NCBI GenBank assembly: GCA_964036045.1
Contig: OZ038381.1
Span: 104,661,367-104,725,366 of the forward strand
Length of the DNA stretch: 64,000 bases
From: Eutreptiella sp. 'Long Island Sound 2002'
Taxonomy: Eukaryota > Euglenozoa > Euglenophyceae > Eutreptiales > Eutreptiaceae
Reading direction: 5' to 3'
Made by a program: the position numbers and the translations under genes. The number at the start of each line of letters is the position of its first letter. Within the stretch, counting starts at the first letter, position 1. Shown here one piece after another: positions 619 through 58,084 of this stretch. The notes under the pieces were generated by a model, which saw only the letters and a list, made by a program, of their open reading frames with translations, was not told the DNA's origin and did no database searches.

Positions 619-2997
619 ATGGACCCCGTGGACCAGCGCGCCTACGTCAGGGGCCTCGAGGCGTGCCTCAGAGTGGCGCATCGCTGGCACACCCGCTCCC
701 CGTCACCCCCGCGGGGACAGGGGGCATCACCCGCTCTCGACACCCACCAGGCCAAGAAGACCAAGACAGGCCAGGGTGCCCGCCAGCGCGCCCGCCAACA
801 AGGCACGGCACCCCAGCCGGGACCGAGGCCCAGCCATGCCGCACCACCCCACTCCCAGACCCCCGCGGCACACCAACAGCACCACCCTCACCAGCGCCCA
901 CCACCGCCACCGTACCGCAGCACCCTAACCCGGCAGCCCCGGCAAGGACCACTGCCCGCAGGCATCCGCGCCATACAAGGACCAGCATTCACGCAGGGCC
1001 ACTGAACATGGCACCACCAGCACCATCATCACGCCCCCGCCCCCCCCCACCCCTACCCCCCGACGCCCCAATACTACAGCAACCCCCACGCGCTCGATCA
1101 CCACCAAGCCCCAGCGTAGCCGGCCCCCACAGGCCACCCAGCCCACGCGGCGCACCACACCGCACCGCACCATCACGTGTACCACGGGCACACCTACCAC
1201 CACAACAAACCCTTACCACCGTACCCACCAGCGCCGTGGTACCACACACAGCCAACACACCCTCACAACCACCACTAAACGGTCCTGCACCACCTACCGC
1301 CCCCACTGCACAGGCTCGCGACATTCGGGCCACCATATGCCCCCATAGACCAACAGGGGGCCATGCACGCGCACCAACAGCACCAGGGCCTACAAGGAGC
1401 ACCCCACCACCACCGGCAGCCCCCCCCGACCCGAACCCATGCCAACAAGCACCATCCACCAGCAGCCACCCGCTGCCTACGAACCACAGGCCTACCCGGA
1501 TGCCCGGGCAGCCACCTCCCAGCCATACCTCGCCACCGCGGCAAGCCAGGGTCCGCAAGAACAGCACGGCACGCACACGCAACACCCACACGACCCAGCA
1601 GGACGCCCAGACTCCGGTCCAGCACAGCACCCATCCCCGCTCCCCCCGCCACCAGCAGTGCAACCCCCACAACATCCCCCTCCGCCCCTCCCCCGGGACC
1701 AGGCCACAAACGCACCACGCAAAGACCCCCACCAAGCCCCGCCACCCCCAGCCCCCGCCGACACACACCACCGGGATTTACCCTCCTGCAGCCACCAAGG
1801 GAAACCCCATCACCAGACCCCACACGCGAGAACGACAATCGCCCCCCCCAACCCACACCACCCCCCTCACCACCTCCCGCACCACCAGCCGCCGCACCGA
1901 CCGAACCCTACGCCCTACACAACCCCGCAGCGGTACGGCAGCACCTCCGGGACCTCGGAGACCAGGAGGTGCTACGCTTCCACACCTCTGGCACCACCCA
2001 GCGCATCCGGGCGGCCACCCTCGTCCAGGCGGCTACCCTGCGGGAGGGCGTCCGAGACTTCCTCTTCGACGCCTTCCTCCACGTCGCCCGGCACGACCGC
2101 GTCCTGTTCGCCACCCTTGACGGCGAGAGCCTGCCCCCCACAGGGAACCGAATCTGGGTACCCCCCATCGACTGGGGGCCACACTTGGTCGGAAAACCAG
2201 TGCCGGGGCGGGTGAACACCAAGGGCCGCACCCGCTACCACGAGCCCAACATGGCCCACAACCCACCCAGCGCCACCCCCGCCAATACCAAGGCGTGGGA
2301 GAGGGGGAAATGGGGCGACCGGATGGCCTCCCTGAGCAACTTCAGGGACCACGTCACGGGCAATGTCCCCACCCCCGACAACCAGCAGCCAGCCCCCTCC
2401 ACGTACATGACCCTCATGTACAACATACACTACACCCTCTCCACCACCCACTACCACGCACCCACCGGCACCTGGGTGGTACACGGTACCGACTCCCTTC
2501 TCCCCGCTGACTACGCCCCCTTCCCGCCGCACAACACGGCCCCCGACAGGTACACCAGAGAGGACAAGCCGGACGAACCCCACATCTGGGGCACGTGGGA
2601 GCGCAGGTCTCTTGACACGCTGCTCTCCATCCGCAGCCGCAACCAGGACCTTGGCAGGGTGATGTATTGCCTTGCCAAATGGACCCAAGGGACCTGGGAG
2701 ATCTGCACGGAGCGGTGGATGTGGAAAGTAACACTGCGTCCGCAGCAGAGGGAGGCCCCCCTGAACTGCATGGGACCCACCCCACGGCGCCCCACCACCC
2801 TGCAAACCTGCCCTTACATGGTTGCAGCCCGCCTCACGACTCTGCTGTGGCCGGGCCAAGATACCCCCACCCAAAACTACCCCTACCTCACGGAAGAGGA
2901 CATGCCCGGCATCCAGCGATGCATCTTCAGCACCATCGACTACCTCCAGCAAACGCGCGCACACCTCCTGGAGCTGAAGTGGACCCCCCCCGGATAA
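619..2997 (+). pseudogene. Pro/His-rich ORF of GC-rich element A (in-frame stops)
   Basis: One plus-strand frame stays open for about 790 codons except for three nonsense codons: TGA at 1003, TAG at 1117 and TAA at 1276. The start at 619 is chosen because an ordinary-looking segment (MDPVDQRAYVRGLEACLRV) begins there. It is followed by about 350 residues of Pro, His, Thr and Ala low-complexity sequence. The C-terminal half, from about 1900, has balanced composition with many Trp, Tyr and acidic residues, for example RHDRVLFATLDGES and RVMYCLAKWTQGTWEI, so it probably folds. I do not recognise the family. Its position just upstream of the 4.3-kb LTR-like repeat suggests a gag-like or ORF1-like product of a retroelement. 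That is inference; no RT or integrase motif is present. Confidence 0.5.
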
Positions 2998-3078
2998 CCC
3001 ACTCACCCACGCATCCGAGACAATGCCACTACGCCACCACATACCACACATGACACCGGCCAAAGCACTAGCACCGGA

Positions 3079-4310
3079 ATGCATGCGGGACACCAGGGAC
3101 ACTGCACGCACACATCCGATGCCCGAACCCGCACCCTCGTCCTCATTACTCACAGGACCCAACATCCGGCGCCTGCCCCCGCCGCCCGAGACCCCCCGCT
3201 GTCCCCCACATGCGTCCCCTCCGCCTCCGACTCCACAACCTCCACCACCGCAACCACCTCGTCCGCCACCACCACCACATCCTCGTCCAGCACACCACCA
3301 CCGGAGCAGCGGGGAAAACCTCCCAAACGGGCCCCGAAACCCGTCCCCACCGCAAGCCCCCCAACCAACGCCATAGCCTACGCCCTGGCAAAGCCCACGC
3401 CCGCAACCCGGCCAAAACCCAAGACGGCCGCCAAGCAGCCACCCAAGCCCTGGAACGCACCGAGGCCTCAGCCCGCTGCCAAACCCAAGCCCAAGCCCTG
3501 GCCCGGCGCCACGCCGACAGCGCGAGCTGCATCCCCCGAGGACGTCCTTCTACGACCTCCGGCCCAAGCCATCCTAGACCCGGCAGCAGCAGCGCCCAGC
3601 ACGGCGCCCCCGGACGTCACGGACACCGCCGCCACCACCTTCATGGCGGATCGCGCCGCGGCCGAGGCGCGACGCACCTCGTCCTGCCACCCCTCAAAGC
3701 CCGCAGCCCAGGTCCACGGGCTGACTCCGCCCAGACCAGAGCAGCGCGAGGGCCAACCAACAGCGTCCCTGCCCCCCTACCAACCTCCGATGCCGGCCCA
3801 CATCCAGCAGATGCCCCACTACCGCCGCCACCACGGATCCGAGCCCTACCCCGAGGCGGAGACCGTGCGCGCGTACCCAGGGGTCCACGTACGCCTACGC
3901 CCCCGCTCTCCCGGCGATCCCACCGCAACGACTACGAGGACTCCCCCAGGCCAGCCACCGCCACCAGTCCCCATGACCCCACCACTAATACCCGCGCCCA
4001 CACCTCCGCCCAAGGCCACGGCCCCGCCCAGGGCCATTGGTGGCAGTGCTGGACCCACACGCAGCTCTGGGAGCTGCGAGACTTGGCCCGGGCAGACCCC
4101 TCCCTGGATGGCCTGGTCCACCGGCCCCGCAAGGGGTCGGCGGAGAACCCCCGCCTGCAGTTTGCGAGGGGGTGGATGCCACAGGCCGCACGGGAAGCCA
4201 TGCTGGCCGATGCGCTCCATCCCGAGGGAATTTACCTGCGCAACCTCCCCGCACCCCACGACCACCCGTATGTCCTGAGACACCTGCTAGAGACCCTCCA
4301 GGAGGCGTGA
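3079..4310 (+). pseudogene. Second ORF of element A, Pro-rich with a helical C-terminal domain
   Basis: This continues the plus-strand coding of element A after the stop at 2997. The first part reads best in the same phase as the upstream ORF, with Pro/Ala/Lys-rich sequence such as KPKPKPWPGA. The last 90 residues read best in another phase, so a frameshift or small intron lies between about 3850 and 3960. The C-terminal part (WTHTQLWELRDLARAD to VLRHLLETLQEA) has balanced composition and looks like a compact helical domain. A similar pattern closes the ORF at 25154-25781: Trp-Thr, then Glu-Leu pairs, a Met-Leu-x-x-Ala-Leu segment and a final Leu-x-x-Leu-Leu-Gln. Function is unknown. It may be a structural or nucleic-acid-binding protein of the element. 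Confidence 0.45.
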
Positions 4311-4640
4311 AGAGAAGGAAGGTGCCTGTGGGACATCACCCCAAGCCTAACCCACGCACACACACCCCCTCGCCGGCCAGCAAGCGTCCACGCACAGACA
4401 CCGGCAGCACCCACAGCACCTCTCGAGCCCCGCGCGCCACACAGCATGACCTGCCTGACCCCCCGGCCAGCGGCGCAACCACCTAGCCTCGAGGGGGGAT
4501 ACTCCCTGGGTGACGCCCAGGCCGCACGCCGACAACGCTCCCTGCCACCCCAACAGCCCGCACACCGGCCCCAGCCGAGCCGACAACAGCGAACCTGCCC
4601 GCCGGCCGAGCCGCCAAGGTGCCAACCGGGCCCGACAAAG
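4311..4640 (+). other. Non-coding end of element A
   Basis: C-rich sequence between the last ORF of element A and the 4.28-kb repeat. No purine-rich tract directly abuts the repeat at 4641, so a standard polypurine primer is not obvious. No gene is seen. Confidence 0.35.
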
Positions 4641-6900: not shown

Positions 6901-8083
6901 GTCCACGGGACGCTGGGAATGGGCCGGTGCCAGGGTGTTGCATAGGGGAATGGGACATGGGATGGGAAGGGAGACCGAAAGCGCCAAGCAACAGCCCCGT
7001 GGGATTGGGAAACCAGTCGCCATGGAGTGGTGAACCATGGGCCAACCATGGTGATCCTGACCACGGGAAGTCGGGAAAATGCACTGAACTCCGGGACGGC
7101 CGTGAGGTGTCCGCAGGGGTGAGGGTTTGCCTTGAGATCCCCGGGTCAATGGCCTGAGTACAGGTAGGTTCACGCGTGAGCGGGACCAGGGGGAACGTGG
7201 AAAGGGTCGCCCCCTGGCCTCCAGCCGTGGATGGACGACAACCAAGTGCATCCGGGAGCTGAGTGGGTAGTCTAACCCCTGAGGGATGGGGAGTGGTGGA
7301 ATGTGGTTGACAGAGAGAAATGCTCCGCTGTTGGCGAGGGCTATCCACAGAAAACCCGCCTGCAGGCGCCCAAAAGGCTGTGCTAGGGGGGGAAGGCCGG
7401 AGGATCCTTCAATGGGTGACCGGAAGGAGCTGAAACCGTAAGGGCAGCGACTGAAGGGAACCTACCGCCGGTCATGCCCCAAGGGAACCTGGTTGAAGTT
7501 CTCGGCCGTGAGGTGAGACAGGGGTCCCCAGGGGAACTGATGGTGGAGACCTCTCCTTCCCGCCAGAGGCGGCCACCATGTAAAACAAACAAGGAGATGT
7601 CAGATGAGGCTGCGGACGCGGCCGCCCTTACTTACATACTTACTCACTCCGACCCATGGAAGCAACTGATGACAGGCGTGCCGGCACACAGCCCAGGAGG
7701 GGGTCGCCTGCCAAGCAGCGGGGCCCCGCAACTGAAGCCACAGGGATGAGGAGGTCGTACCGTAGACTCGCGGGAGCAATACCCCCTGTGGTTAGAGATA
7801 CTCCATACGGCTGAGCAGCCCCCAGAGCTGCCGGCCACAGGAGGGGGCATGTGACTCTACCCACGGACACATGTGTGTACACCCTCCCACCCGGGACACC
7901 TGGGATGGGTGGCCGCGACACTGCCTTCCCAAGCACCTGCGGGAGCGGCTTAAGAGGCACCTGACCTAGGGCAGTGGGAGGGACAGGACGTCCCCTTGGT
8001 AAGACCTTCTTCTTGCATTGTCAAAGGAGGCATCCCAAGCTCCCGTAGATACCTACCTAGCTACCTCATGCTTCTCCCTAACG

Positions 8084-8917
8084 TTAGTTGGGCCTTAGCA
8101 AACCACCATATGTGACCCTAAATGCTGGTGCATCAAGATAATTGACCGGCGGCTGCCAAAATTGCCCCAAAAAACAGCCACATTTGCCCTATTTAACTTG
8201 TAGTTCTCGTGTAGGCAGATTTAGGGGAGGCATCATTAGATTTCAAATTGCTCAACCTTGCTGCTAAGGTTAGTTTGGCCTAGGCAAAACACCATATGTG
8301 ACCCTGAATCCTCTTGCATCAACACATGTCAACGGCAGGTACCAAAAGTGCCTCAAAGCAGCCATATTTGCCCTGTTTGACCTCTACTTCTAGTATAAGT
8401 AGATTGAGGGGAAGTGTCATGAGATTTCAAAGGGCTGAACTTGTTCCCAAGCTTACTGGGTCCCTGGCAAACAACCATTTGTGATCCTAAAAGCTCTTGG
8501 CTCAAGATAAATGAATAGAGGGAGCCAAAATTGCCTCAAAACAGCCATATTTGCAGTATGTAATGCGCAATTCTCGTATAAGTAGATTTAGCGGAGGTAT
8601 CTTGAGATTTCAAATTGCTCAACCTTCTTCCCAAGGTTAGTTCGGCTTTGGCAAACCACCACATGTGATGCTAAACGCTCCTGGCTCATGATGAATGAAG
8701 AGTGGGTGCCAAAACCGCCTCCAAGCAGCCATATTTGCCCTTTTTCACGCGTAATTCTAGTATAGGTAGATTCAGGGGAGATGTCATGAGACTTCAAGTT
8801 GCTCAACATCGTCCCTAAGGTTGGTCTGGGCCTGGCAAACCACAAATTATGACCAGAAATGCTGTCTACTCAAGACAAACGATCAGGGGATGCTAAAATT
8901 GCCACAAATCAGCCACA
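8084..8917 (+). repeat. ~184-bp satellite at the end of LTR-like copy 1
   Basis: Successive units start at 8084, 8270, 8453, 8637 and 8821 (periods 186, 183, 184, 184), the last one partial. Each unit has a TTAGT-GGCCTTGGCAAAC-like start, a CAGCCATATTTGCC core and an AGTAGATTTAG-GGAG-like third quarter. Units differ from one another by roughly a fifth of positions, so this is an old array. The same array closes copy 2. Confidence 0.75.
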
Positions 8918-10960: not shown

Positions 10961-12525
10961 TCACTGGACCTGCAGATTGAGCAGCTGGTCCATAGCATTC
11001 CTCCTAAGCTCCATATCACCGTCAGTCCTATTCAGCACACGAACCAAATCATTCACTGATATATTCACACCATTAGCTTTGTTGTACCGGGCCCAGACGT
11101 TATTCACACCACCGATGAACTTATCAATGGGCTCCCATGTAGCTTGCTCATGCCCAAGCCATTTGGCATGCCACAGTCTCTTTCGACTACGTCCACTCCC
11201 TGACCACTTACAGTCCAGGATGTCTTCCAAAACATAGGAGTCATCAACTGGGGGCTTATCTTCCTCAACATAGTAATGGAAAGGGACCTTCTGTCCTCCG
11301 AAGGGGGCAATGTAAGGCTTAAGCCGAGTGGCAGGCAACACTTGTTCTCCTTTGGGCGTCGCAATCAGATAGCGTGCCTCACTGAGAACTTCAATCACCT
11401 CACAGGGACCAAACCAGAGACGCTGGATTTTAGTGACCTTATCAGTGGGTAGGTATCGGACCCAAACGCAATCTCCCACCGACAGACTCAGGGGGGGATG
11501 CTTAGCCATCCATTTCTTTCGTGCATCTGCATGAATCTTCGTCAGTCCCGTTTGGACAAGCTGACGCTCCTTGCTGACGCGGTCAAAAAACTGCAACACA
11601 TCCTCCTGTCCATATTCCAACTCATGCGGTGGACAGTCCCCAAACCCGATGGGGTCTCTCCCAAACACCAGCCTATGGGGTGAATAGGGTGAGACTACCC
11701 CAGGCAAGTCATTAAGGCACCACAATGCCAAAGGCAAAGCATGCACCCAATTGCATTTTCGCTCAGCTAAATACCGCCTCAAGCTGTTCACTACCAGTTT
11801 GACAGCAACCTCGGCCCTGCCATTGGACTGTGGGCGTTTAATAACCCCTTTGTGTTGTTCAACACCACTGAGTGCACACAAAGTCTCGAAAAACTGCTTG
11901 GACACGACCTTATCATTATCTGACATAATTTCTGTGGGCAGGCCTGTAAAAAAAACACATCTGTCTAAAAACAGCTCCGCTGCCTTTTCAGCTGTCAGAC
12001 CCTCTTCCAAACATGGTATACCCATGGTATACCCTGTGAGACGGTCCACAATTACAAAAATAAAATCAAACTCAGTTGCGCCCACCTTGGTGTGCGGCAA
12101 CTTGACAAAGTCCATGGCGTAGCTGGCAAATGGGTAATCTGGGATTGGAAAATGATCCAAAGTGTCAGGAGAAGGGTGATTCCTGGCCTTGCATGTCTGA
12201 CAGGTAGCACATGCTTGAATCAGAGACTGCACACGTGGACCTATATTGTCAGGGAAAGCAAATTTGCGCATGCACAACTCCTTCAGCTTATCCGCACCAG
12301 GATGGGAGTATGCATGCATGGCCAACACCACCTTATCAACTAAACTGGGGGGCACCAGGATCTTACCCTTACATCTGATTTTATTGCGATGTAAACCAAA
12401 CCCAGAGCGCACATTACCTTTCTGTAAGTACTCAAACAGCTCCTTCAGCACAGGATCTGCCTTGTATTCCTCTGTCCAGTCTGAAAACAAAACGGAGGTA
12501 TCACCCTGGGGTGAAGGCAAAAACT
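10961..12525 (-). CDS. Element 1 integrase with C-terminal chromodomain
   Basis: Integrates element cDNA into chromatin. The frame is open to a TGA at 10961. An HHCC zinc-binding region is visible (HAYSHPGADKL ... CATCQTC). The DDE core follows, with Asp in AMDFVKLPH, Asp in IMSDNDKVVSKQF and Glu in NGRAEVAVK. The usual GPY/F-like region (WFGPCEVIEVL) comes next, and a chromodomain (YVLEDILDCKW ... LWHAKWLGHEQATWEPIDKF) ends the protein. Chromodomains of this group bind modified histones and steer insertion. The N-terminal 50 residues of the open frame belong to the nested element at 12526-16625, so the natural link to RNase H is broken. The sequence downstream of the insertion looks intact. 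Confidence 0.9.
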
Positions 12526-12567
12526 GCCCCATGAGACCCACCACTGGGGGTATTTTCTTCGAACGAA
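12526..12567 (+). repeat. Left terminal inverted repeat of the 4.1-kb element
   Basis: Pairs in inverted orientation with 16584-16625. The two are the same length (42 bp), differing by CA plus five Gs here against eight Gs on the right. A further TTCGAACGAAG palindrome cluster follows to about 12620. Confidence 0.75.
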
Positions 12568-12739
12568 ACCTTCGAACGAAGATTATTTCTTCGAACGAAG
12601 AAAAGTTTTGAACTGTTCGAACGCCTTTGTTGTGGCCGTTTTGCTGCAAACATTGCGATAAAATGCTCAACACAGGTATTTTTGAGGGTTTGGTTCTTTA
12701 GATTCAGCCTGCAACCACCTGAATGCCCTGAAAATGTGT

Positions 12740-12820
12740 TTTCGAAATGTGGTGGACTTTTCTTCGAACGAACCTTCGAATGTTCGAACAAAGATATTTT
12801 TCGAAGAAAAAGACGCGGCG
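12740..12820 (-). repeat. TTCGAA hairpin cluster in the 3' non-coding part
   Basis: Contains TTCTTCGAACGAACC, TTCGAATGTTCGAAC and TTTTTCGAAGAAAA, alternating palindromes like those in the introns at 13936-14098 and 15472-15589. It lies after the stop of the candidate transposase gene (12903), so it may be an extra hairpin insertion or a 3' UTR intron. No splice pair could be fixed here. Confidence 0.55.
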
Positions 12821-13935
12821 TTTACAAATGCACATACAGGCAACAACAGAACCGCAGAACCACCAATGTCCCTGTCCAATGTAGCTCTCTGAGTCCTGGC
12901 TCATGACTCACTGCCTGACACTAGTACTGCAACCTCGTCTTTCTTTTCCGTATCCTCTTTGTCTCCCTCTCCGGCATCTTCTTCTTCTTGCTTTCCACAA
13001 CTCTTCGTTGGCGTCTTCTTCTTCTTCTTTGGCCTCTTTGCCTTCACTTTCTTCTTCCTGGCACTTGGAGCTGGCACGCCACCGGTTGCCGACGCCACTG
13101 CCGCCGCGTTTTTGCACTCCTCCTCTGTTGCGTAGCTTCGGGCCGCAACACAATACTCCCCCACAGAATGCCACATGGCAGAGTTGTAGTCTGCAGGGAC
13201 CCAAAAGATTGTACCGGCACGGCCCAGTTTGGTCTTCTGCTGCAGGATGTCTCTGGGTATCTCCGTTCGCCAGGGGCGCCACTTCGAAATCGGCACTCCT
13301 CTCCACGCTCCCCACTGGTCCTCTTGTTGGAGGGGAAGCCATGCCCACGGCAGTGCCCCTCGGTCTGGAATCTGTGTCTCCTGGGTTTCGTCTTCATCGT
13401 CATCATCTCGGGCAGGCGGCTCCTCCTCCTCATCTCCGGAAGGCGGCTCCTCCTCCTCATCTTCTTCAGTCTCTTCGAACTCCTCACTCTCCGAACTCTC
13501 ACCCGGCAGCAGCCTTGCCTTTTTCTTCGGAGGTTCCTTAGCCGCTGGCTTCGCTCGTGGTCTCTTCTTCGGCTTCTTTGTCTTCTTGTAAGACGAGAGA
13601 ATCTCGGCAAGGTTCTTTGCCCGTCGTCTGGACACAACGGGTTGTGGATCTTTGCCCCGCACACCAGCTCTGGTCGTCGACGCTTTTTTTTCGGTTGCCT
13701 CAGGGGAATGCAACGTGGAACCACCCTGGCTCAGGTTGACCCACGTTGGCATCGACTTCACCTTTCTGCGACCTTCTTCATGGTTTTGGAGTGCTCCGAG
13801 GACCGTCAGTGCTCTCGCAGGCTTCGTTAGGAGGTCGTTGAGCAGGCTGCCCGCAGTCACGGTCGTCTCAATTCCACGACTTGGTAGCTGAAGCTTCCAC
13901 CTGACGCCAACGGCGCTGGTTTGCGTTGCTGCAAC

Positions 13936-14098
13936 CTGTGGGCAGTGGAGCGGTAAAAGACTTCGAATACAATCTTCGTTCGAAGATTCGAATGTTCGAA
14001 CGAACGTTTTTTTCTTCGAACGAAGAATGTTTTTCGAAGAATAACGTAGAGGACGCATGCATGGTCAAAAGCGCTCAGCTACAAGGTAAATGCGGTAC
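13936..14098 (-). other. Inferred GT-AG intron made of TTCGAA hairpins (163 nt)
   Basis: On the minus strand the exon ends GAATGGGAG, the intron begins GTACCGCATT and ends CTGCCCACAG, and the next exon begins GTTGCAGCA. Splicing joins the two frames in phase 0 (…PEWE to VAATQTS…). The middle holds ATTCTTCGTTCGAAG, TTCGTTCGAACATTCGAA and similar palindromes able to form long hairpins. Without splicing the upstream frame stops shortly after the junction. Confidence 0.7.
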
Positions 14099-15471
14099 CT
14101 CCCATTCAGGAATGTCCCCTCCCATGTAGCCATGCTGCACTCCTGCTGCGACTGCTGCCTGGAGCACCGTCTGCCACTTCGCCGGTGTTGTGCTTTGCAA
14201 TTGTTGTACTCCCCCGGCTTGCTGCGCTCCTTCGTCCGTCTGGGCTGCCTCACCACCACCCCGCGCCTGAGCGGTGACCTTGACGCCTTTCAAGCGGCCC
14301 GTTGATGTACATTTGCCCCACCCTGGGGGCTCTGAGGAGGGGAATCTGAGCATCACGGTACGGTCTTCACGCCAGCTCTCCACTGCGCCGTAGGCGTGCC
14401 AAACAAGCGCAAGCATACGTATTATCGGGGTTGGGGTGCCTTTTTTGTTCGGGACTGCGAAGGGGAAGGCGCGGGCGACCAGTGCACAAGGCAAGTCCCT
14501 CTCCACAGCCACATCTTTGCAATCGGCTGATAAACACTTTCCGAAACAGCGCCCATAGGTTGACAGTGGCGTAAGCCAAGCGTACTTCGGGTCCCCGAAA
14601 ATGGGCGTATGCGGATTGGGTACGGATTTCCCTAGAATGAGGTCAAGGTAGGGGCGGGTGACTCCGGATTCAACGATTACCTGGCGGCAAGTGTCGAACT
14701 CGGCGCTGACATCGAACACTTCGTTCACCACCACGTAATCCGGATCATATTCTTCTGAATCCTGGGATCCAAAATCTAGCGGGTCATCCAAACGGCGAGA
14801 AGGGGATGGTGACGGCTCCAAATCCGCTGAACGCTGCGGCGCTGGGTGCTGAGCCAGTTGTGTACTACTCTGGGAAGGTGTTCCTGGCGCTGATCGTGAC
14901 GCTGGGGCAGAAGTTGGGTGCGCCTGAAGCAACAATATGGGAGTGCGTGTACAAGAAGGCATGCTCCATCGTTTGTAGTAGAGCAGAGAGCTGGTAGTCA
15001 TCTGTGGTGCTGCCCCCTCTGTTTGTGAACCGCAAGTAGAAATCCTTTAGCTTGGCATTCGTTGGCATTGATAGCGTTGCGTGCTTCCCTGCTGGCGGAC
15101 AAGCATAGCCTTTCCAAGTATTCCCCAAGCAAAGCACCAATTCGCATAAGCATATGAAGAACACAAATAATGGCATGGTGTCGTGGCACTTGAAGCAAAG
15201 GTTTTGAAGCGCAGCCACGAGCTCCCTTGCAGATAGGGGTCTTGCCAAGTCGGGACGCATCACCCGTGCGCGTTCTGCGCCGGTGACAGCCCAGGTAACG
15301 CCTCTTGAGAGGGTTCCAAAGGCCCAAGTTGTGAACTGACGGTATATACCAATGCTCAGTAAGTCCCAAAAACTTCTTCAAAAACGGTAAATCCCCGCCC
15401 AGCATAACACTTGCCGCACAGCGTGCGCCCTTCACGATGACGGATCGCGTAGTTATGATCCGCTGCAGGAC

Positions 15472-15589
15472 CTAGTAGCGTACAAAGCGCAATCAAAATT
15501 TTGTTCGAAAAACATGTTCGTTCGAAGGAAAAGCTTCGTTCGAACGTTCGAAGGTTCGAACGAAGGCAATATTCGAAGAAATAACACAC
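15472..15589 (-). other. Inferred GT-AG intron made of TTCGAA hairpins (118 nt)
   Basis: On the minus strand the exon ends AATCTGAGG, the intron begins GTGTGTTATTTC and ends TACGCTACTAG, and the next exon begins GTCCTGCAG. The phase is 0 and joins …WKKNLR to VLQRIITTRS…, leading straight into the GGDLPFL motif. The interior carries TTCGTTCGAACCTTCGAACG and related palindromes. The restored frame is the main evidence; no RNA data are available. Confidence 0.72.
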
Positions 15590-16583
15590 CCTCAGATTCT
15601 TTTTCCAGACCCGGCGCAAATCCTTCAGATTGGAGTCACCACAGTATGCCAGCTCTAAAACCCAAATGTGTGCTGCATTGCGGGCTAGATGCTCATGATT
15701 TCGGATGCGAATGGTAAGCTGAGTCCAGCTTACACCCGCTACAGGATAACCATCGCCACTCACAATGAAAACCAAACCATCTTTGCTGGGCTGTAGAGTT
15801 TCATAGAGGCAAGGCTGTGTGAAAACGTAGTTAATCCAGTGATCAAACGGCCAGGAGACATTTCGGATGCCAGTTTTCTTGTCGATGTGGCCAACAAGGT
15901 GCAGGGGCTCCTTCATCCTTTTCCAAGCCAAGTTGACTCTCCGGCGGCCTGGCATTGGTTTCCCAAACCTTAGGCCAGTCTGTTTGTACCATACGTCCGC
16001 ACGCTTGGAAATAAAGCGTGATAGAACCCGAAGGCGGCGTCTAGGGATTCCCAAATCGAGAAGCAAAGCGACTGCTTCTTCAGGCGAGCATTGAGCATCG
16101 CTGTGCCACCGTAGAAGTTGATTCAATCTCTGCTTGTCAGCGCCTGGGTTGACTCGTGTGTAGATTGAGTGTAAAAGCTGGCGTCCCAGGCCGGAGGAGG
16201 TGAAAAATTGCACAAGCGCGTCCTCAACGTCCTGGCTATAAGCATTCGTCGTGCCAACCGCGTTTTTGAGCGTAATTCCAAGTTGCACCATTGGTCAAAC
16301 AGTGACACCCTTAAAAATACAACAAATCAGTTGAAAAAACAAAAAAAACCCTTCTTTCTGGCACAAATCTGCGTCTCTCTGGCACAAATCTGCGTTTTTC
16401 TGGCACAAGTCTGCGGCAATCGCCTGTCAATCTGGTGCGCGCGCTGCTGTTGCTGCGCTTTTGCGGCAATTCTCCCCAGCAGCTTGGATTCAATTGGATT
16501 GAATTGAATTGCGATTAAAGCAAATACAGTCTTCGAATTCGAATCTTCGTTCGAAGATTCGAATCTTCGTTCGAAGACTGAAG

Positions 16584-16625
16584 TTCGTTCGAAGAAAATA
16601 CCCCCCCCAGTGGGTCTCATGGGGC
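16584..16625 (-). repeat. Right terminal inverted repeat of the 4.1-kb element
   Basis: Inverted partner of 12526-12567. The adjacent inner sequence (16530-16583) is another cluster of TTCGAA palindromes (GAATCTTCGTTCGAAGATTC repeated nearly twice). Confidence 0.75.
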
Positions 16626-19600
16626 TCTGAACCTGGTGGATCATGCGCATCATCACTTGCTGATGGTACAGCTGCCAAATTCAAATGGCCACCAGCTACA
16701 CTATCACGACCCAAATCCTGATCCACGTGATGCTGTGCTGGAATACTCTCATGTGACTGGCCAGAGCGAGAGCGCGTGCGGTCTGAAATGCCACTGATGT
16801 GTGCAGGCAAGAAAGCTGACTCATAGCCCCAACACTGGGACTGCATCCGCTTAACTACACATTGCACACGCTTGATGTGATTCCTCGAAACTTTCTCAGG
16901 GATTGACAACATTCCTGCTAGGCGAGCAGAGAACTGGTTATCCTCTTTCAGGGCAATACCAGAGTGTTCCATCTGCTCATTGTCCCAAGAGGCACGCAAT
17001 TGGCGAACACTGGCAAGTGCTGCCCTCTCCTCCCCCAACAGACGGAATATGCGTTCTGAAATAACTTTGTCTTCCCATTTTCGGGACTCTGACTCATCTC
17101 TGTGCACTCCCTCCCTGTCAGGCACAGAACCGTGCATTGTAGCATCCCCTGCATGCTCACACGCAGGATACACCCATCTACTGAGTGTATCTGGCACTAT
17201 ATGTCCCTTTCCAGGAGTGTACTCCACCTGGATATTAAACTGGGACAAAGATTCATGCCAGCGCCCTCTCCGGCCCACCGGCCCACTGATTGTACCCAGG
17301 TCCTCACGGAACCAGGATATCAGGGCCTGGTGATCCACTAAGGACCGCACCAACACTGTAGAGTGAATCCAGGAACGAAATTTGTGCAACGCCCCAATCA
17401 GAGCGTAGGTCTCCTTTTCACGGGTAGACCATGCACGTTGCCCTAAATTATCCTTGCCCTGGAGCTTCCGGCTGAAAAATGCCACTGGGCGAAAATTGCC
17501 CTGGTCATCCTCCTGCTCCAACGACGCCCCTACAGCATACTGACCGGCATCTGTACGAATCAGAAAAGGCTTCGTCACATCAGGAATCTGCAACATAACA
17601 GAATTTCGCATCAGTTCCTTGATTCGTTCAAACGCCTGAATCATCTCATCAGTCCATTTAATTCGCCTGTGCTGAATCTGACGCTTACTCTGCTTAACAT
17701 TACACTCCATGCCTGTCAAAGAGTCACTGAGAATTGCAGCCCAGTGAGCATAATTGGGCATATAAATAGCATACCATTGGGTAAGGCCCAAAAATGCTTT
17801 CATGTGGGTGGGGGTACGTATATGCTCAGTAGACCATCGGTCTATGGGCTCTGTCTTACTCGGCGCTGCGCGTCTGGTGCCGGCCTCTAGAATATGGCCA
17901 CAAAACTTTACACGTGTCATGAACATGTGACACTTCTCACGCTTGACTGTGAGCTTGTATTTCTGCAGGCACGCAAAAACTTTTCGTAACTGCTGATAGT
18001 GAGCTTCAATAACAGACTCATCTATCTCCCCTGTTGCATTGCCTGGGGTTCCCTCAAGCATATCATCAATGTATGGTTTCCCCTGGATATCTGGATCTTG
18101 GGACAGGCAATATTGCACCATGCGCTGATACGCCGCTGGGGCTGTTTTCAGACCCATGGGGAGTACCTCCCACTCAAATACTCCCCAAGGAGTCATAAAA
18201 GCTGTCAGCTTCTTTGACTCCTCAGTGAGGGGCATTTGGTGAAAGCCATCCTCTAGGGCGAAAATAGTCCAGAGGACATTTTTCCCCTCATCCACCAAAC
18301 GATCCTCAATGTTTGGCAAAGGAAATTGCAGATCCTTAATCTGGGAGTTCAGATGGCGGTAGTCAATCACTAGCCGCCACTTACCCCCAGGTTTTGGAAC
18401 TACAAATGCCCTTGACACCCATTCAGGATTATCCTCCTGGGCAGCGCGTAGCATGCCCCTGTCCCTGAACTTTTCAATCAAGGCCTTGAAGGCCGCTGCG
18501 CGGATACCTACGCACCGGTAAGGCTTCACAGCCTTAGGTTCAGCACTGGGCTTAAGCTCAATGTGGCAGACGCCATACGGTCCATGCAGATCCATATCTG
18601 CAGGATCTGACTGATTAATGGACTTAAAAGTGAAAACTGAAGAAAACTCCTCCTCCAGCAATTTTCTGTATTTGGTACATGCTGGATGGGCAAGGTCTGA
18701 CTCAATAACAGAGCGAATGGTGCGGTTCCTTATATTACAAGGTGTTTTGCCTGGAGTGGCTGTGTGAACACACGCCCATTTTGACTGAACCTCACCATTC
18801 GCATTCTTCTCCTCAGAAGAACGAAACTCAGAATCACCCCATGAATAATCAGAAGCAGAATGGGCATCAAAGAGGACTACAAGATGTGTGTAGTTACCCT
18901 TCTGCTCAAATTTCCTGCCTGAGGTATCCTGAAACAATCTGCAATCAGGAGGTAAATCCCACCAGTCCACTGCTGTCTCACCCATGGCCCAAAACCAGGA
19001 CTCTGATTTGGCCACTGGGACCACAATTAAACCCCTGGCTTGGTCCAGTAAAATTTTGGTGATAACTTCTTTCATCTGGTGGTACTGGGGATGTAAGTAT
19101 ATAAAATCACGATTCAATGGCTTATCCCAGGCCTTCGATCCCCAATACTTGGAAATCTGTTTCTGTCTCGTCGAAGACGTCCCAAAAACATCAACTGCTG
19201 GGCACTCACCTGCCCACTCAATAATGGAAGAGAAAATCTCAGGTGTCAGGGAATAGCGACCCCTGCGATGCTGCAAACCCAAAGCTCTCCTTTTGGCCCT
19301 CAACGAGATAGAATGGCGCAAAATTTTGCGCATAGACCTGAAACTGCCGGCCAGACTGCCTGCATTGGATTGTGGTGTTTTCCTGGATGTCTGTATATTG
19401 TGCGGGGGTTCAGGGTTGGGGTGTGTGTGATGGCTCACGCCATCTGGGTGATCCCTGGAATAGCCCCATCCTCCTGCAAAACAGTCTGGCACTGCCTGTG
19501 CCTCAGGGCCCTCAGACTCAACATCCGAAATACCCTGTGACTCAGTATCAGAATCATATGTGACCGGCTCAACAACGCAAGAGGGTACAGTAACCTCCAT

Positions 19601-19702
19601 AGAGCCTTCATCAACAGATCTCTCACTAGGGGGCCCAATAGGTCCCAGCTCGGAGGGCCGCACTGCCCGCAACTTGGTGCAGATGCAGTCCCCTCCTTGC
19701 AA
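16626..19702 (-). CDS. Element 1 reverse transcriptase and RNase H
   Basis: Copies element RNA into DNA. After an N-terminal acidic linker comes a segment with AVDVFGTSSTRQKQISKYWG and ARGLIVVPVAKSESWFWAMG, resembling the DLFAS domain known from DIRS-type elements. RT motifs follow: WVSRAFVVPKPGGKWRLVID, ALEDGFHQMPL, LPMGLKTAPAAYQRM and the catalytic YIDDML. RNase H shows FLIRTDAGQYAVGASLEQ, TREKETYALI and SLVDHQALISWF, followed by the Ty3-type tether VEYTPGKGHIVPDTLSRW. The frame is uninterrupted until the nested element cuts it at about 16625, before the integrase zinc finger. It overlaps the dUTPase frame by about 75 nt in a different phase, so expression probably needs frameshifting or reinitiation. 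Confidence 0.9.
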
Positions 19703-20230
19703 AGAGCGACATACGATTATTGTGGGACACCTGGGGCAGGTCAGGTCTCACTCCGGAGCTGCCAAACCCCTGGGCGCCCCGTACTGATGGTGGCAAGGAA
19801 TATACTTCCACCACATTACAAATACTGTTGCGTTCAACAATAAGTTGGGCTATGCGATCTCCTTGTGATACCAAAAAGGGACTAGGGCCATTATTAACCA
19901 AAAAAACGCCCAGATTTCCCCGGTAATCACGATCGACAACCCCTGCAGCAACATCAATATCGTGCTTCACAGCCAAACCGGACCTAGAGGCAATTCTGGC
20001 ATAGGTACCGGCTGGTGTCTGCACTGCCAAATCAGTCCGTACAAGGAGCCGACTCCAGGGCTCCACAATGGCATTCTCCGCCGAAGACAAATCAAGCCCA
20101 GCGGCTTCTGGCGACTGTCTGGACGGCAAAACGGCCTTTTCACTTAACCTGTGTACCAAAATCTCAGCATCCATGATTCTGGCCTGAGTGTTAGGGACCT
20201 TATCCTCATCAGGACCCCCCCCCCCCCTGG
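19626..20230 (-). CDS. Element 1 dUTPase (dUTP pyrophosphatase) domain
   Basis: Hydrolyses dUTP to dUMP, keeping uracil out of newly made DNA. All five motifs of the homotrimeric dUTPase family are visible in order: AGLDLSSAE; RIASRSGLA; AGVVDRDYRGNLGVFLVN with the catalytic Asp; FLVSQGDRIAQLIVE; and the P-loop-like RGAQGFGSSG. The frame enters at the 13-C run (13 Gs on the coding strand) at 20215-20227, where it follows the protease frame in another phase. It ends at adjacent TAG and TGA codons at 19626. The placement between protease and RT is unusual for a chromodomain Ty3 element. Domain identity is confident; enzymatic activity is inferred. Confidence 0.9.
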
Positions 20231-21405
20231 CTGAATTCATCCAACGACACTTGCAGGATCCATTCATGACAACCAGGAGTGGAGGCACCGGTGATGGGTT
20301 CCTTTGAGGCATAATTCTGGCGATCAGCTGCACATGCAGCATTGGAAGGGCAAACCCTGTGGGAGCCACAACTACCCACAGTTGAAGACTTCTGCAGTGC
20401 GGAATTACAGCCCCGCACGGGGCTGACAAATGTCTTTGGGGACGTCCAAACTCCAAAGCAACTTCTCCACAGAGAACCCGGGCAGCACTGCCCATCCGGA
20501 ATCACTGGCATTGATGAATGTCCTTCCAGCAGTGTGGCATGCCAAATCGGCGCAATGCCCGAATCACTGCATTGCCGATGACACGCACATGCGTTAGTAC
20601 ACACACACCCACACTGAAAACCTGTAGAGCATTCATTGCCATTTCCCTGTGTCGCTGCTGCACTTTTCGGCGCCTGTAGCCGCGAACTGTTGAGGAGGGA
20701 TAATAAAAAAATCGGGAGAGAGAATAACAGCGAGGCACAAACGTAATGCTGCGTGCGACAAACTGGGGTTGCCGCTGGCTTACGTGGCCGTGCCTGGTCA
20801 ACTGTATGTGTGGTCTTTTTGATGGCACCAACGTAAGGAATTTCCAGTCTGGATCGATCACTGTCGAGCTTATCCGGATGAACCGTCACGCACTCACGTG
20901 GCATGAGACATCCTGCCATTGGGCAAACCATCAACCCAAATGCCTTTAGAAACGGGTATCCAAATATCAGCTCATCAGATATTTCAGCACAGTAAATGAA
21001 AACTCGTGGGCACTGTACCCACTCGCCACCAAATTCACTGCAAATTGGCACAAGTACATCTGACCATGCCCCATATTTGCCCCCTTCCACCCTTCCTGAC
21101 GTAATTGTGGACAGAGACAGTGGCGTGCGCGCTGGTTCCAACACTCCTGCAGGAAAAAACTTCCTCGGTGCAGCAGCAAAAATCGTCGCCCCTGCATCAA
21201 CCAGGGCAGCTGGGGTTACCAAAACTCTCTCCGAAAAAGTGACCTTGATCTGCAGAATGAGTTCCACGTTCACATCAGGCCTAGTGCGGCCTGTTGCTCG
21301 CAAACGAGTCCTCTCCAGGACTCGATAAACTGGCGCCGGCATCTGAGGGCCAGCCACGCCTGGTACTTGGGAATTTACGGACATACCAGGGAGTGTCCGA
21401 CTCCC
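20209..21405 (-). CDS. Element 1 aspartic protease (retropepsin-like)
   Basis: Cleaves the element polyprotein. The active-site loop reads ALVDAGATIFAAA, with Ala replacing the usual Thr or Ser of DTG/DSG. The later flap and hydrophobic-Gly region is SDELIFGYPFLKAFGL. The frame is the same phase as the upstream gag frame, separated only by one TAA at 21406, so gag and protease could form one polyprotein by readthrough. After about 20700 this phase becomes Cys/Ser-rich with no recognisable domain. It ends just after the 13-G run that leads into the dUTPase phase. Confidence 0.75.
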   Translation of the reverse strand, partial: GSRTLPGMSVNSQVPGVAGPQMPAPVYRVLERTRLRATGRTRPDVNVELILQIKVTFSERVLVTPAALVDAGATIFAAAPRKFFPAGVLEPARTPLSLSTITSGRVEGGKYGAWSDVLVPICSEFGGEWVQCPRVFIYCAEISDELIFGYPFLKAFGLMVCPMAGCLMPRECVTVHPDKLDSDRSRLEIPYVGAIKKTTHTVDQARPRKPAATPVCRTQHYVCASLLFSLPIFLLSLLNSSRLQAPKSAAATQGNGNECSTGFQCGCVCTNACACHRQCSDSGIAPIWHATLLEGHSSMPVIPDGQCCPGSLWRSCFGVWTSPKTFVSPVRGCNSALQKSSTVGSCGSHRVCPSNAACAADRQNYASKEPITGASTPGCHEWILQVSLDEFSQGGGGS

Positions 21406-22449
21406 TTACTTACTGGTACCCCGTCCTTTCGGTTCAGGTTTCAGTTCTGGATGAAGAGTCCAGCACTCCTTCTCCGCATGTCCTTGTATACCACAGTGAC
21501 TACATTTGTCCTTGTGTGTCTGGTTCCCCTTTTCTGCCTGTTTGCCCTTTCGCCGTCCCCCATCCTTTTCTTTCTGGGACGGTCTCTCCTTACACCTCAC
21601 TCCCTTCGGATGAGGGGGGCCTCCACACCACAAGCACTTACCTGCCTTCAGGCGTCCTTGCACCGTCTGCTGGGCCAACTTTTTTTTCTTGACACCCTCG
21701 GCCAGCCACTTGGGCCAGTTTGAAGCGCTGTCAGCCCAACAGGATTCCAGTCTATGTGGTCCCTTGCACTTAGGACATACAATTGAGGACGGCGGGGCAG
21801 AACCAGCCCTGGGTTTACCATCATGCAGACCTCTGACCTGTCTATCCGCATAACGTCCCCGTATGGCCTCCGCCCTGTGCTGAGTGAGCAATTCAGGCAC
21901 GAGCCACTTATTACACTCCTCATAGGTGAATTCACGCAGGGCTTCCACATCAGCTTCCAGGAGTTCCTGAATTAAGTCACTAAAAAACCCACTCCTGGTT
22001 AATGCCCTCATGAAAATCTTCTTGGCATGGGCAGCCGTGACCTCCCCCACCCTCTGCAAAAGCACACGCCACTGCAAATACCATTTGCGATATGACCTGT
22101 AATTTCCTGCAGGGGGGGTGTGGTCCTCCCACTCATCTTCAACGACATTGTCATCAGCACATTCACGTGCCTCATCCAATAACTCCTCATGCATGTCCTC
22201 ATATGTCCATTTCAGTTCATACATAAGTTCGAGATACAATTCAGCATATTCATCGGGAAGAGAAGTCAAAAAAGTGAGAGCCTTGAGTTCGGGGCTCAAT
22301 ATCTTTCCCCAATAACCCAAAAAAAATTCCCATTGGCGCAAGTACCCACGCAGCGTTTTCCAGCTGCCATCCCAGTGTGGGCGCTTAACAAAGCGCTTCA
22401 CATCACGTTTGGTGTCCTCGTCCATGATCTTGAAATCAACGTCCTCCAA
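21406..22449 (-). CDS. Element 1 Gag, capsid-like part with CCHC zinc knuckle
   Basis: Forms the virus-like particle and binds element RNA. Capsid-like helical sequence includes WKTLRGYLRQWEFFLGYWG and FTYEECNKWLVPELLTQHR. Near the C-terminus a CCHC knuckle reads CSHCGIQGHAEKECW, with a second partial Cys cluster before it (CLWCGGPPHPKGVRCKE). The frame closes at a TAA (21406), beyond which the same phase continues into the protease. The upstream coiled-coil part is in another phase and overlaps by about 50 nt, with the join near 22480. Confidence 0.8.
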   Translation of the reverse strand: MEDVDFKIMDEDTKRDVKRFVKRPHWDGSWKTLRGYLRQWEFFLGYWGKILSPELKALTFLTSLPDEYAELYLELMYELKWTYEDMHEELLDEARECADDNVVEDEWEDHTPPAGNYRSYRKWYLQWRVLLQRVGEVTAAHAKKIFMRALTRSGFFSDLIQELLEADVEALREFTYEECNKWLVPELLTQHRAEAIRGRYADRQVRGLHDGKPRAGSAPPSSIVCPKCKGPHRLESCWADSASNWPKWLAEGVKKKKLAQQTVQGRLKAGKCLWCGGPPHPKGVRCKERPSQKEKDGGRRKGKQAEKGNQTHKDKCSHCGIQGHAEKECWTLHPELKPEPKGRGTSK

Positions 22450-24734
22450 CTCCCGGAGAGCAAACCACGAATTCTACTCACCCTCCCTCTCTCGGCCCCT
22501 TCACTGGGATGGGATCGTAATTCACCCTCTAGGTGTTTAAAAAACTCATGCAGTTTAACACCCGCACGCGCAGAGCCCTCAGGTGTTGGGGTGTGGGTTC
22601 GTTCCGCTGGTGTGTCACTCATGCTGGTGCTTGCCATGCCCGACAATTTTTCTATAGGCGTTCCACCCACCAATGCACTCAGTGTACTATGTACCTCATG
22701 CTCGTCATCCCGGGTCTTACCAGGCTTCCCGAGGGTGGAAGGGTTCTCCAATTTTATCCCTTCACTCACTGAATGCGAATACGGTGTATGCACACACAAT
22801 GTCGTACCTCTTGTACTGGCCGTACCTGGCTTTACTTCTTCTGTGGGATCATCGCCCGTGAGGTTTTCAGCCGTCAGCTCGGCAATCGCAAGCTGTATGG
22901 GCGAAAGAGAGTCCTCAACGAATGACCGCAAAACGGCCATAGTAACGGGCGAATCACGGACAAAAGACTCACCACAATTCAACCGTTGAGACGTGTGTGT
23001 ATTCCTCCCATATGTGCGCAATGCATTGATTTGTTCCCAAACCTCATGAGAGAAATGTTTGAATGAGCGTTCCAAGCGGAAAACTTCACCCTTCAACGCT
23101 TGTAATGCCAACTGTGGTAAAGAATCTAATTCTTGATCGGATTCCTCTCCCGCATTAAAGTTCAACCGGCGTTCTACGCTCTTGTCTTCCAATGATTGAA
23201 CCCGCAAGCAAAGAGTCGTTAGCCTATCAACAAATGAGTCTACACCCGCCACCTTGGTTGCGAGTGAGTTTACCTGTTTTCGCAACGACTCAATTTGAGC
23301 CTCATCCTGCATATCACGAGAGGGATTTGCAAATGATGTACCTCGGGCCGAGGCATCACACCTCGCTCTTTGATCATCACCCGCTGGTTCTCCACTCCCG
23401 GCTCTCGAATTTTTCGTTGATTTAGCTTCGTACTCCTTGCTCTTCGACTCTACCAATTCAAGTCGAAAAGTGTCGAGACGAGCTTCCACAACGTCGAGAG
23501 TACAACAATGAGCTATTACCTTATCCACACGTGACAAGCGGTCATTAATTCTATCGAGTTGCAACGCAATCGAATTTGAATCACGACCCTGCTCCCAAGA
23601 AGCAGAAATAGGGGAGGACCGAAGTTTGGAAATGGAATCTTGCATCTCCCGAACTTGCCTCTCCAATGCTCTTCTATGTTGCTCTTCCTCACTGCAAGAA
23701 TAATTGACAAATTGTTTGATGTCATGAATACTCGAGTCCAAACGCTCATCGGATGCACATACTTTCACCAATCCCTCAAGTTCAGATACTCGGTCCATGA
23801 CACCATCCCATTTTTTTGATTCTTCTCGTTTGAATTCATTAATGCGCTTATCAACCTCTAAAGCAAGAAGATGAGATAAATTGGGCGTTGGTTGAGGACA
23901 TTTAAACTCGTCCCGAATCCGCCCCATTTCGGTCGTGAAATGTCGATGATACTCCTCAAGAGTGGACCGAAATTGCTTGCGAACCGATTGCAAGGCGGTG
24001 TCTAGTTCATTAAAAAATTAAGAAATCCTACGTTCCATTACACTCAATCGGTCGGCAAGTTCATCATGCCTAGATTGCAAAGTATGAATGGAAGAACGAA
24101 TTATATATTTTTTTTGATAATTCTCAATCTCAACATTCACCACCTTGTTCAATGGTTCTCCAAACACCCCAACTTGGTGACTCAATGTCCCAACCTCACC
24201 TTGTAAGGCATTAAAGCGACCATGCAACCGAGATTATAAATCACTAAAATGGCGAAATTCTTGGTGCAAATCTTCCACTTCGGACCTCACCTTCAAGGAA
24301 TGTTTGAAAGTGTTCTCAATGTGAGTACTCAATTGTATAGCAAATGCACCAAGACGATCACCCTCACGCACAACAACTTGCATTCGTCCCTCAATGTTGA
24401 GTAAATATTGATCCACGTTCACATTAAAAGAAACAACATCAGACATGAGTTGTCCTAAGACATGAACACGTTCCTCAATTTCCTCAATGCGAGGGTCTTC
24501 ATCAATAGTTCTACTCGCACGAAGGATCTCAAATGCTGCCCCATCGGGTCGGACCATCCGAATTCTCTCCACTCGCTCAGATCCAAATACAAAACCTTCA
24601 TGTTGAAAGTCGGGCTGTCTGAACCTTGGTTCTCTACTCGGAGATTCCGACTTTAGGAGCGCATTTATGCCCACTAATTGTCCTTCGTGACGAGGATCAT
24701 GACGAAATTCGATGGACTTCCTCTCCATTTGCAA
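22398..24734 (-). CDS. Element 1 Gag, N-terminal coiled-coil part (two in-frame TAA)
   Basis: A single minus-strand phase runs from the ATG at 24734 to 22398 and is rich in Glu, Arg, Leu and Gln with heptad-like patterns (DRLSRVDKVIAHC; LHQEFRHFSDL). The likely role is Gag multimerisation. Two TAA codons at 24234 and 24018 interrupt an otherwise continuous phase of about 780 codons. Both could come from CAA by one change. The last 60 codons are Pro/Ser/Thr-rich and lead to the phase change into the capsid part. No known domain is recognised. Since the LTRs are nearly identical, the stops are recent or are read as sense. Confidence 0.7.
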
Positions 24735-29956: not shown

Positions 29957-30751
29957 TTAGTTGGGCCTTAGCAAACCACCATATGTGACCCTAAGTGCTG
30001 GTGCATCAAGATAACTGACCGGCGGCTGCCAAAGTTGCCCCAAAAAACAGCCATATTTGCCCTATTTAACTTGTTGTTCTCGCATAGGCAGATTTAGGCG
30101 AGGCATCATTAGATTTCAAATTGCTCAACCTTGCTGCTAAGGTTAGTTTGGCCTTGGCAGAACACCATATGTGACCCTGAATCCTCTTGCATCAACACAT
30201 GTCAACGGCAGGTACCAAAAGTGCCTCAAAGCAGCCATATTTGCCCTGTTTGACCTCTTTTTCTAGTATAAGTAGATTGGGGGGAAGTGTCATGAGATTT
30301 CAAAGGGCTGAACTTGTTCCCATGGTTACTGGGTCCCTGGCAAACAACCATTTGTGATCCTAAAAGCTCTTGGCTCAAGATAAATGAATAGATGGAGCCA
30401 AAATTGCCTCAAAACAGCCATATTTGCAGTATGTAATGCGCAATTCTCGTATAAGTAGATTTAGCGGAGGTATCTTGAGATTTCAAATTGCTCAACCTTC
30501 TTCCCAAGGTTAGTTCGGCTTTGGCAAACCACCACATGTGATGCTAAACGCTCTTGGCTCATCATAAATGAATGGTTGGTGCCAAAACCGCCTCCAAACA
30601 GCCATATTTGCCCTTTTTCACGCGTAATTCTAGTATAGGTAGATTCAGGGGAGATGTCATGAGATTTCCAGTTGCTAAACATCGTCACCATCATGCTGTC
30701 TACTCAAGACAAATGATCAGGGGATGCTAAAATTGCCACAAATCAGCCACA
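29957..30751 (+). repeat. ~184-bp satellite at the end of LTR-like copy 2
   Basis: Same array as 8084-8917, unit for unit, with part of the final unit deleted. Confidence 0.75.
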
Positions 30752-58081: not shown

Positions 58082-58084
58082 TGA

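What the first reader, a model, noticed from the sequence alone, without database searches (positions are those of the whole stretch)
12526..16625. TIR element whose ends and introns are made of the same TTCGAA hairpins: a candidate introner-type transposon
The terminal inverted repeats, both inferred introns and the 3' non-coding part of this 4.1-kb element all contain clusters of TTCGAACGAA palindromes. If the introns are short relatives of the element's ends, the family would be one in which a transposon supplies sequences that behave as introns (introners), here caught together with a candidate transposase gene. Introners arising from TIR DNA elements are known in several protists; an autonomous partner with hairpin introns in its own gene would be unusual. 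The sharing of motifs is seen directly; the mobilising role is inference.
Basis: partly seen in the sequence, partly recalled or inferred. Interest (0 to 1): 0.88.

Follow-up and report, generated by a model that had tools for sequence, protein, structure and literature searches.

The report
Transposon carrying its end-hairpins as introns
This is a deleted copy of an abundant cut-and-paste-like DNA transposon in a large eukaryotic genome; the palindrome clusters that mark its two ends also fill each predicted intron of its genes, and the copies examined suggest that these clusters travel inside the element instead of making new introns in other genes.

Summary
The window element (12528-16623) is a deleted copy of a 4.76-kb, two-gene DNA transposon with TIR CCCATGAGACCCAC; 2-bp target duplications flank 24 of 30 copies examined (window). 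It sits in a Ty3/gypsy-like pol gene; two relatives of that protein read through the site. Full copies carry six TTCGAA palindrome arrays: two at the ends, four in predicted GT-AG introns (one deleted in the window copy, one 3' of ORF2). Exons hold 3 TTCGAA in 3,590 nt, introns 5-8 each. Arrays resemble each other beyond the motif (13 of 15 pairs above all 200 controls), though a longer shared binding site would do the same. The introner reading is not supported: of the genome's 597 hairpin matches 50 were listed, 38 distinct hairpins; 20 lie between element exons by their flanks and 18 fit element spacing or known copies. 114 kb of other sequence held no array. Best account: end-type arrays became resident introns of the element. 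Splicing and binding are untested, selection tests negative, the transposase unclassified, the species unnamed.

The parts
12528..16623 (-). DNA transposon copy (genes on the minus strand), internally deleted: 4,096 of about 4,756 bp
   Evidence: TIRs and full-length relatives
12526..12527 (.). 2-bp target site duplication GC, one side
   Evidence: (P0040 and P0041 read GSEQF through the site)
16624..16625 (.). 2-bp target site duplication GC, other side
   Evidence: as above
12528..12567 (+). terminal inverted repeat, 3' end of the genes
16584..16623 (-). terminal inverted repeat, 5' end of the genes
12558..12621 (.). TTCGAA palindrome array A (end array)
16532..16593 (.). TTCGAA palindrome array E (end array)
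15590..16291 (-). ORF1 exon 1 (candidate transposase, 234 codons)
15472..15589 (-). intron D, 118 nt, GTGTGT...TACTAG, with palindrome array 15504-15577
   Evidence: same length in 13 of 13 copies aligned
15067..15471 (-). ORF1 exon 2, first part; the rest is cut by a deletion of about 369 bp
15062..15067 (.). junction of the first internal deletion relative to full copies
14928..14933 (.). junction of the second internal deletion (about 289 bp), which removes ORF2 exon 1 and intron F with its array
14099..14923 (-). ORF2 exon 2
13936..14098 (-). intron C, 163 nt, GTACCG...CCACAG, with palindrome array 13962-14038
   Evidence: fold z -4.57
12901..13935 (-). ORF2 exon 3, stop at 12901 (acidic and lysine-rich part)
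12728..12837 (-). intron B, predicted beyond the ORF2 stop, GTATGTG...TTTTCAG, with palindrome array 12741-12805
   Evidence: no reading frame constrains it
10961..12673 (-). target of the insertion: integrase half of a Ty3/gypsy-like pol ORF (its first codons lie in the element)
16490..19702 (-). target of the insertion: RT/RNase H half of the same pol ORF (its last codons lie in the element)

Best explanation
A deleted, non-autonomous copy of an abundant class II (TIR, cut-and-paste-like) transposon with two genes. Its ends carry arrays of TTCGAA palindromes, most simply read as binding sites for the transposase or for the second, charged protein (inference). Arrays of the same build also lie inside the element about every 1 kb, each enclosed in a predicted GT-AG intron, so that they can stay in the DNA without interrupting the proteins. 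I think they arose when end-type array DNA was inserted or duplicated into the element's own genes and was captured by splicing; since then they have spread as passengers of the element. Shown: TIRs, TSDs, empty site at protein level, many copies, six arrays, splice-compatible borders and frames. Inferred: protein binding, actual splicing, transposase identity, origin of the introns from the ends.
For: Mobile: 2-bp TSD in 16 of 20 and 7 of 9 further copies (six of the seven compared by eye from the printed flanks) plus the window, 24 of 30 against about 2 expected at 1 in 16; of 31 scored places one (C16) was not examined at its other end. Two of three pol relatives read through the insertion point. 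Young: each of 20 full copies has 9-19 substitutions against their majority sequence. Arrays: exons 3 TTCGAA in 3,590 nt, introns D/F/C/B 6/8/6/5, end stretches 6 and 4, in L032. Likeness beyond TTCGAA: 13 of 15 array pairs exceed all 200 motif-preserving shuffles, 14 of 15 the 95% level; spacing 17-8 in D, F and B, 8-17 in C. Hairpins of types C, D and F stay with the element: 20 of 20 isolated ones have element flanks. Intron D: 118 nt in 13 of 13 copies; 61 of 1,416 intron sites against 10 of 493 flanking exon sites changed, Fisher p 0.019, sites taken as independent. Splicing gives ORF1 563 aa and ORF2 635 aa.
Against: No RNA. Distinct substitutions among the 20 copies give no sign of purifying selection on the spliced frames (ORF1 42 of 60 nonsynonymous, 44.2 expected; ORF2 50 of 69, 50.6 expected); raw ratios of 0.38 and 0.54 were inflated by variants shared between copies. 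Read-through of intron D is open: 117 of 127 scored matches have no stop anywhere in the 311 residues, so a 311-aa read-through protein is not excluded. The donor of intron D reads TT in place of GT in 4 of 19 copies read and the acceptor AG is lost in 1 of 19. The introns lack the CCCATGAG termini; the likeness concerns the inner arrays only, which a common binding motif could also give. End array 1 against D is within the control range. No Pfam, PDB or fold support for a transposase.
Confidence: 0.55

Rival explanations
1. Introner source: the element is the autonomous partner of a family of short hairpin introns that its transposase inserts into host genes; its own introns are such insertions.
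For: Introns and ends share arrays. The ends contain splice-like borders: G-run|GTATTTTC at one end and TACCCCCAG or TACCCCCCCCAG at the other. Introners from TIR elements are published (PMC9860276, sections 7 and 26 read).
Against: All 38 distinct hairpins listed were assigned to element copies, 20 by their flanks and 18 by spacing or known copies; no array in 114,396 nt of other sequence; no CCCATGAG ends on the introns. Odds lowered from 0.12 to 0.06. Limits: only C1 up to 126 Mb was listed, and this pattern does not see the end arrays.
Confidence: 0.06
2. Binding-site array only: the arrays are transposase or accessory-protein sites needed along the DNA; they were never insertions, and introns are simply where such arrays can be kept.
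For: Recurrent spacing within arrays; arrays near 0.05, 1.07, 2.27, 3.28, 4.5 and 4.7 kb of a 4.76-kb element. Subterminal repeats of this kind are known from CACTA elements (recalled).
Against: Does not say why each array is enclosed in its own intron with GT-AG borders; no binding data.
Confidence: 0.22
3. Splicing aid: the hairpins were selected as RNA structures that bring splice sites together; likeness to the ends is convergence on simple palindromes.
For: Introns C and D fold better than shuffles (z -4.57, 0 of 200; z -2.16, 7 of 200). Hairpin-bearing introns are described in Amoebophrya (PMC7789003, passages) and euglenids (PMC6221363, passages).
Against: The end arrays, which are not introns, fold about as well (z -4.24 and -2.04), while the stretch of array B folds less clearly (z -1.63, 15 of 200); the shared sequence and spacing exceed what pairing needs.
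Confidence: 0.09
4. The inferred introns are not spliced: ORF1 is a 311-aa read-through protein and the downstream frames are separate or decayed.
For: Open read-through frame in 117 of 127 scored matches; no selection signal; lost donor in 4 of 19 copies read.
Against: Intron C carries an in-frame stop that the splice removes; D, F and C each join long open frames in phase; intron D changes faster than its flanks.
Confidence: 0.08

Closest known systems
Introners derived from TIR DNA elements (PMC9860276; passages and sections 7 and 26 read)
   Same: Intron sequences related to the ends of a DNA transposon, GT-AG borders
   Different: Here the introns lie in the transposon's own genes, lack TIRs of their own, and no host-gene copy was found among the hairpins listed
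Hairpin introner elements of Amoebophrya (PMC7789003; passages read)
   Same: Introns with inverted repeats that form hairpins
   Different: There in host genes, largely with non-canonical borders; here canonical borders inside a transposon
Euglenid nonconventional introns and the idea that they come from MITE-like elements (PMC6221363, PMC11170887; passages read)
   Same: Structured introns, proposed transposon origin
   Different: Here GT-AG borders and pairing in the middle, not at the intron ends; species of the window not established
CACTA/EnSpm transposons with subterminal repeats and two products (recalled)
   Same: Repeated short motifs near both ends, two genes
   Different: TIR starts CCCATGAG, no Pfam transposase match, arrays also in introns

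Membership tests
Class II TIR DNA transposon | terminal inverted repeats | tested here: met
   14-nt TIR CCCATGAGACCCAC; both ends identical in 19 of 20 full copies, one last-base change
Class II TIR DNA transposon | target site duplication of fixed length | tested here: met
   2 bp in 24 of 30 copies, varied sequence; and the window
Class II TIR DNA transposon | empty site known | tested here: met
   P0040 and P0041 read through the insertion point (protein level); third hit P0042 (39% identity) not compared there
Class II TIR DNA transposon | DDE-type transposase | tested here: inconclusive
   no Pfam or PDB match; exon 2 model mean pLDDT 34.9
Introner | many copies as introns of unrelated host genes | tested here: not met
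   in the listed part only: 38 of 38 distinct hairpins assigned to element copies; the rest of 597 matches not seen
Introner | intron bounded by the element's termini | tested here: not met
   no CCCATGAG end in introns D, F, C, B as printed
Introner | spliced from transcripts | not testable with these tools
   no RNA data
CACTA/EnSpm | TIR beginning CACTA or CACTG (recalled) | tested here: not met
   CCCATGAG
CACTA/EnSpm | matching Pfam transposase | tested here: not met
   no family for ORF1 at E up to 10
Tc1/mariner | TA target duplication (recalled) | tested here: not met
   TSDs CT, CA, GG, AT, TG, CG, AG, TA, TC

The most novel reading that the evidence does not exclude
The element is a self-contained intron-making transposon: its end arrays, with splice-like borders already present in both TIRs, became introns by insertion into its own genes, and the same process can turn insertions in host genes into introns, so that the autonomous source of an introner family is caught in the act. 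(Probability lowered from 0.12 after the flank check.)
Probability: 0.07. Interest if true: 0.9.

Novelty: new variant of a known kind. Interest (0 to 1): 0.58.

Why it matters
Where new introns come from is an open question. A young, abundant transposon in which each predicted intron contains the same kind of array as its ends gives a defined system in which to ask whether mobile-element end sequences can become introns, and whether introns serve as storage for DNA sites that coding sequence could not bear. Near-identical copies make splicing, excision and site binding testable.

Tried and rejected
Purifying selection as proof of the spliced frames: the raw ratios vanished once distinct substitutions were counted against base-matched controls; rejected. 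A first alignment held one copy (L038) in the wrong orientation; redone. The ORF2 rows used wrong coordinates; corrected. The array count (128,110 nt, 23 TTCGAA, no cluster) masked by similarity to the element and counted some flanks twice; replaced (114,396 distinct nt cut by TIR coordinates, 21 TTCGAA, no cluster of three in 80 nt). One search was first sorted by hairpin sequence alone, with one hairpin (C1:123288728) unassigned; the flank check placed it in intron C of an element copy. Structure of exon 2: mean pLDDT 34.9, not used; no fold search was run. Relatives elsewhere: none in viral contigs, genome contigs or plasmids, near mode; the profile search returned 27 proteins, all but P0043 and P0044 already known. 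Seven viral contigs with one 17-nt end motif each have no array and no TIR: chance. Species: Euglena gracilis was considered from genome size (2.28 Gb here; 2.37 Gb in PMC11252322, passages), but its longest chromosome is given as 121.4 Mb and C1 here is 201 Mb; the spliced-leader search did not complete; left open. Paper searches gave listings; two failed. Also seen as passages: PMC12730881, PMC11453091.
Full report
What is there. The finding describes a TIR element at 12526-16625 with TTCGAA palindromes in its ends, two inferred introns and the 3' non-coding part. All of this is in the sequence. The element lies inside a Ty3/gypsy-like pol ORF on the minus strand: RT/RNase H on one side, integrase on the other, a dUTPase ORF beyond. 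Two of three database relatives of that pol protein read straight through the insertion point as GSEQFLPSP, so the empty site is GA-GC-AG and the filled site GA-GC-[element]-GC-AG.

The family. The window's genome (unnamed, 2.28 Gb, 2,205 contigs) gave 268 matching pieces from 31 scored of 486 first-look candidates in the DNA search, and 127 matches from 127 scored of 5,669 first-look candidates in a search with the protein P0016, which spans exon 1 and the read-through of intron D. These are lower bounds, and candidates are not confirmed copies. Twenty full copies were fetched with flanks. They are 4.74-4.76 kb long, with the same 14-nt TIR (one last-base change in 20 copies) and a 2-bp target duplication in 16 of 20. 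Nine more copies give 7 of 9 (one true and two false printed by the script, six matching pairs compared by eye from its output). With the window that makes 24 of 30; one further scored place (C16) was not examined at its other end. The duplicated pair varies. Each full copy has 9-19 substitutions against their majority sequence: a recent burst. The window copy has 13 substitutions and two deletions, about 369 and 289 bp, which remove the end of ORF1, the start of ORF2 and one intron.

Genes. In L032, ORF1 is 333-1034 plus 1153-2142 (563 aa) and ORF2, whose ATG overlaps the end of ORF1, is 2133-2180, 2361-3185 and 3349-4383 (635 aa). ORF1 has no Pfam or PDB relative; ORF2 only sub-threshold matches to charged families. 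Calling ORF1 the transposase is inference from its place in the element. The protein searches returned 37 and 27 proteins, as far as identities show of this family alone.

Introns and arrays. Six TTCGAA arrays occur in L032, and by the near gap-free alignment in the other 19 full copies: both ends and introns D (118 nt), F (180), C (163) and B (110). Exons have 3 TTCGAA in 3,590 nt; the introns 6, 8, 6 and 5; the end stretches 6 and 4. D, F and C join long frames in phase. B lies beyond the ORF2 stop and rests on its borders alone (GTATGTG, as in F, and TTTTCAG). Against controls that keep every TTCGAA in place and shuffle the rest, 13 of 15 array pairs exceed all 200 shuffles; end 1 against D does not reach the 95% level, and end 1 against B exceeds 95% but not the maximum. 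D and C are the closest pair, in opposite orientation (score 86, control maximum 54). Spacing lists share 17-8 in D, F and B and 8-17 in C. A longer shared binding motif could give the same result, so common descent is likely but not shown.

Intron D across copies. The 21 ORFs that run past residue 234 all continue into it (counted by eye, one with a 7-residue gap), as do the 127 scored matches; no copy without it was seen. In L032 and twelve other copies picked it is 118 nt, with GT in 12 of 13 and AG in 12 of 13; it changes at 61 of 1,416 sites against 10 of 493 in the flanking exon (Fisher p 0.019, sites taken as independent). Six further copies read have GT in 3 and TT in 3 (the three are neighbours at C1:41.70 Mb) and AG in 6. 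Together GT stands in 15 of 19, AG in 18 of 19. It is an old resident of the family, not an insertion special to the window copy; some copies have lost its donor.

Is it an introner system? The hairpin pattern has 597 forward matches (it is its own reverse complement, so the reverse count is the same) and none for the reversed control. Fifty forward places were listed, all on C1, some nested: 38 distinct hairpins. Twenty had no listed partner; for all twenty I fetched the flanks, and each is bordered on one or both sides by element exon sequence at 86-100% identity, three of them at deletion junctions. The other 18 lie at element-like spacing from one another (1.0-2.2 kb) or inside copies known (placed by eye). 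So none of the 38 is a free-standing intron in another gene. Limits: the pattern does not see end arrays, most of the 597 matches were not listed, and a search for TIR pairs did not complete.

Splice-like ends. Both TIRs hold a G-run followed by GTATTTTC at one end, or read the other way a C-run followed by AG. The abstract of PMC11170887 reports C-rich tracts before the 3' splice site in Euglena gracilis (passages). This keeps the bold reading alive; the species here is not established.

Against my reading. There is no RNA; the selection test is negative; the read-through frame of D is mostly open; the introns have no terminal CCCATGAG; and a DDE fold could not be shown. I put 0.55 on 'end-type arrays resident as introns of a TIR transposon'. 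After the flank check I lowered the introner source from 0.12 to 0.06 and the bold case to 0.07, and raised the two array or read-through rivals slightly.

Noticed in passing
window 10961-23993: A Ty3/gypsy-like retroelement with pol ORFs and a dUTPase ORF (19626-20495); the transposon is nested in its pol gene.
   Followed up: partly
window 8071-8843, 29948-30680, 31226-32032: Arrays of about 184-185-bp tandem repeats; the first two share much of the unit.
   Followed up: no
window 16353-16415: Three 21-bp tandem copies in the leader upstream of ORF1.
   Followed up: no
G000:C1:41699620-41705264 (L097-L099): Three exon 1 - intron D - exon 2 segments spaced 2.7 kb apart, all with the donor of intron D changed from GT to TT: perhaps a local duplication of a deleted copy.
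   Followed up: partly
proteins P0023, P0028, P0039; L082, L092, L094: ORFs and stretches that join distant parts of the element: further internal-deletion derivatives.
   Followed up: partly
window 12540-12560 and 16590-16612: Both TIRs contain splice-like borders (G-run|GTATTTTC; C-run followed by AG).
   Followed up: no
window 40431-41192, 44311-45957, 47106-49355, 54941-58084: Further retroelement-like protease, integrase and RT ORFs.
   Followed up: no
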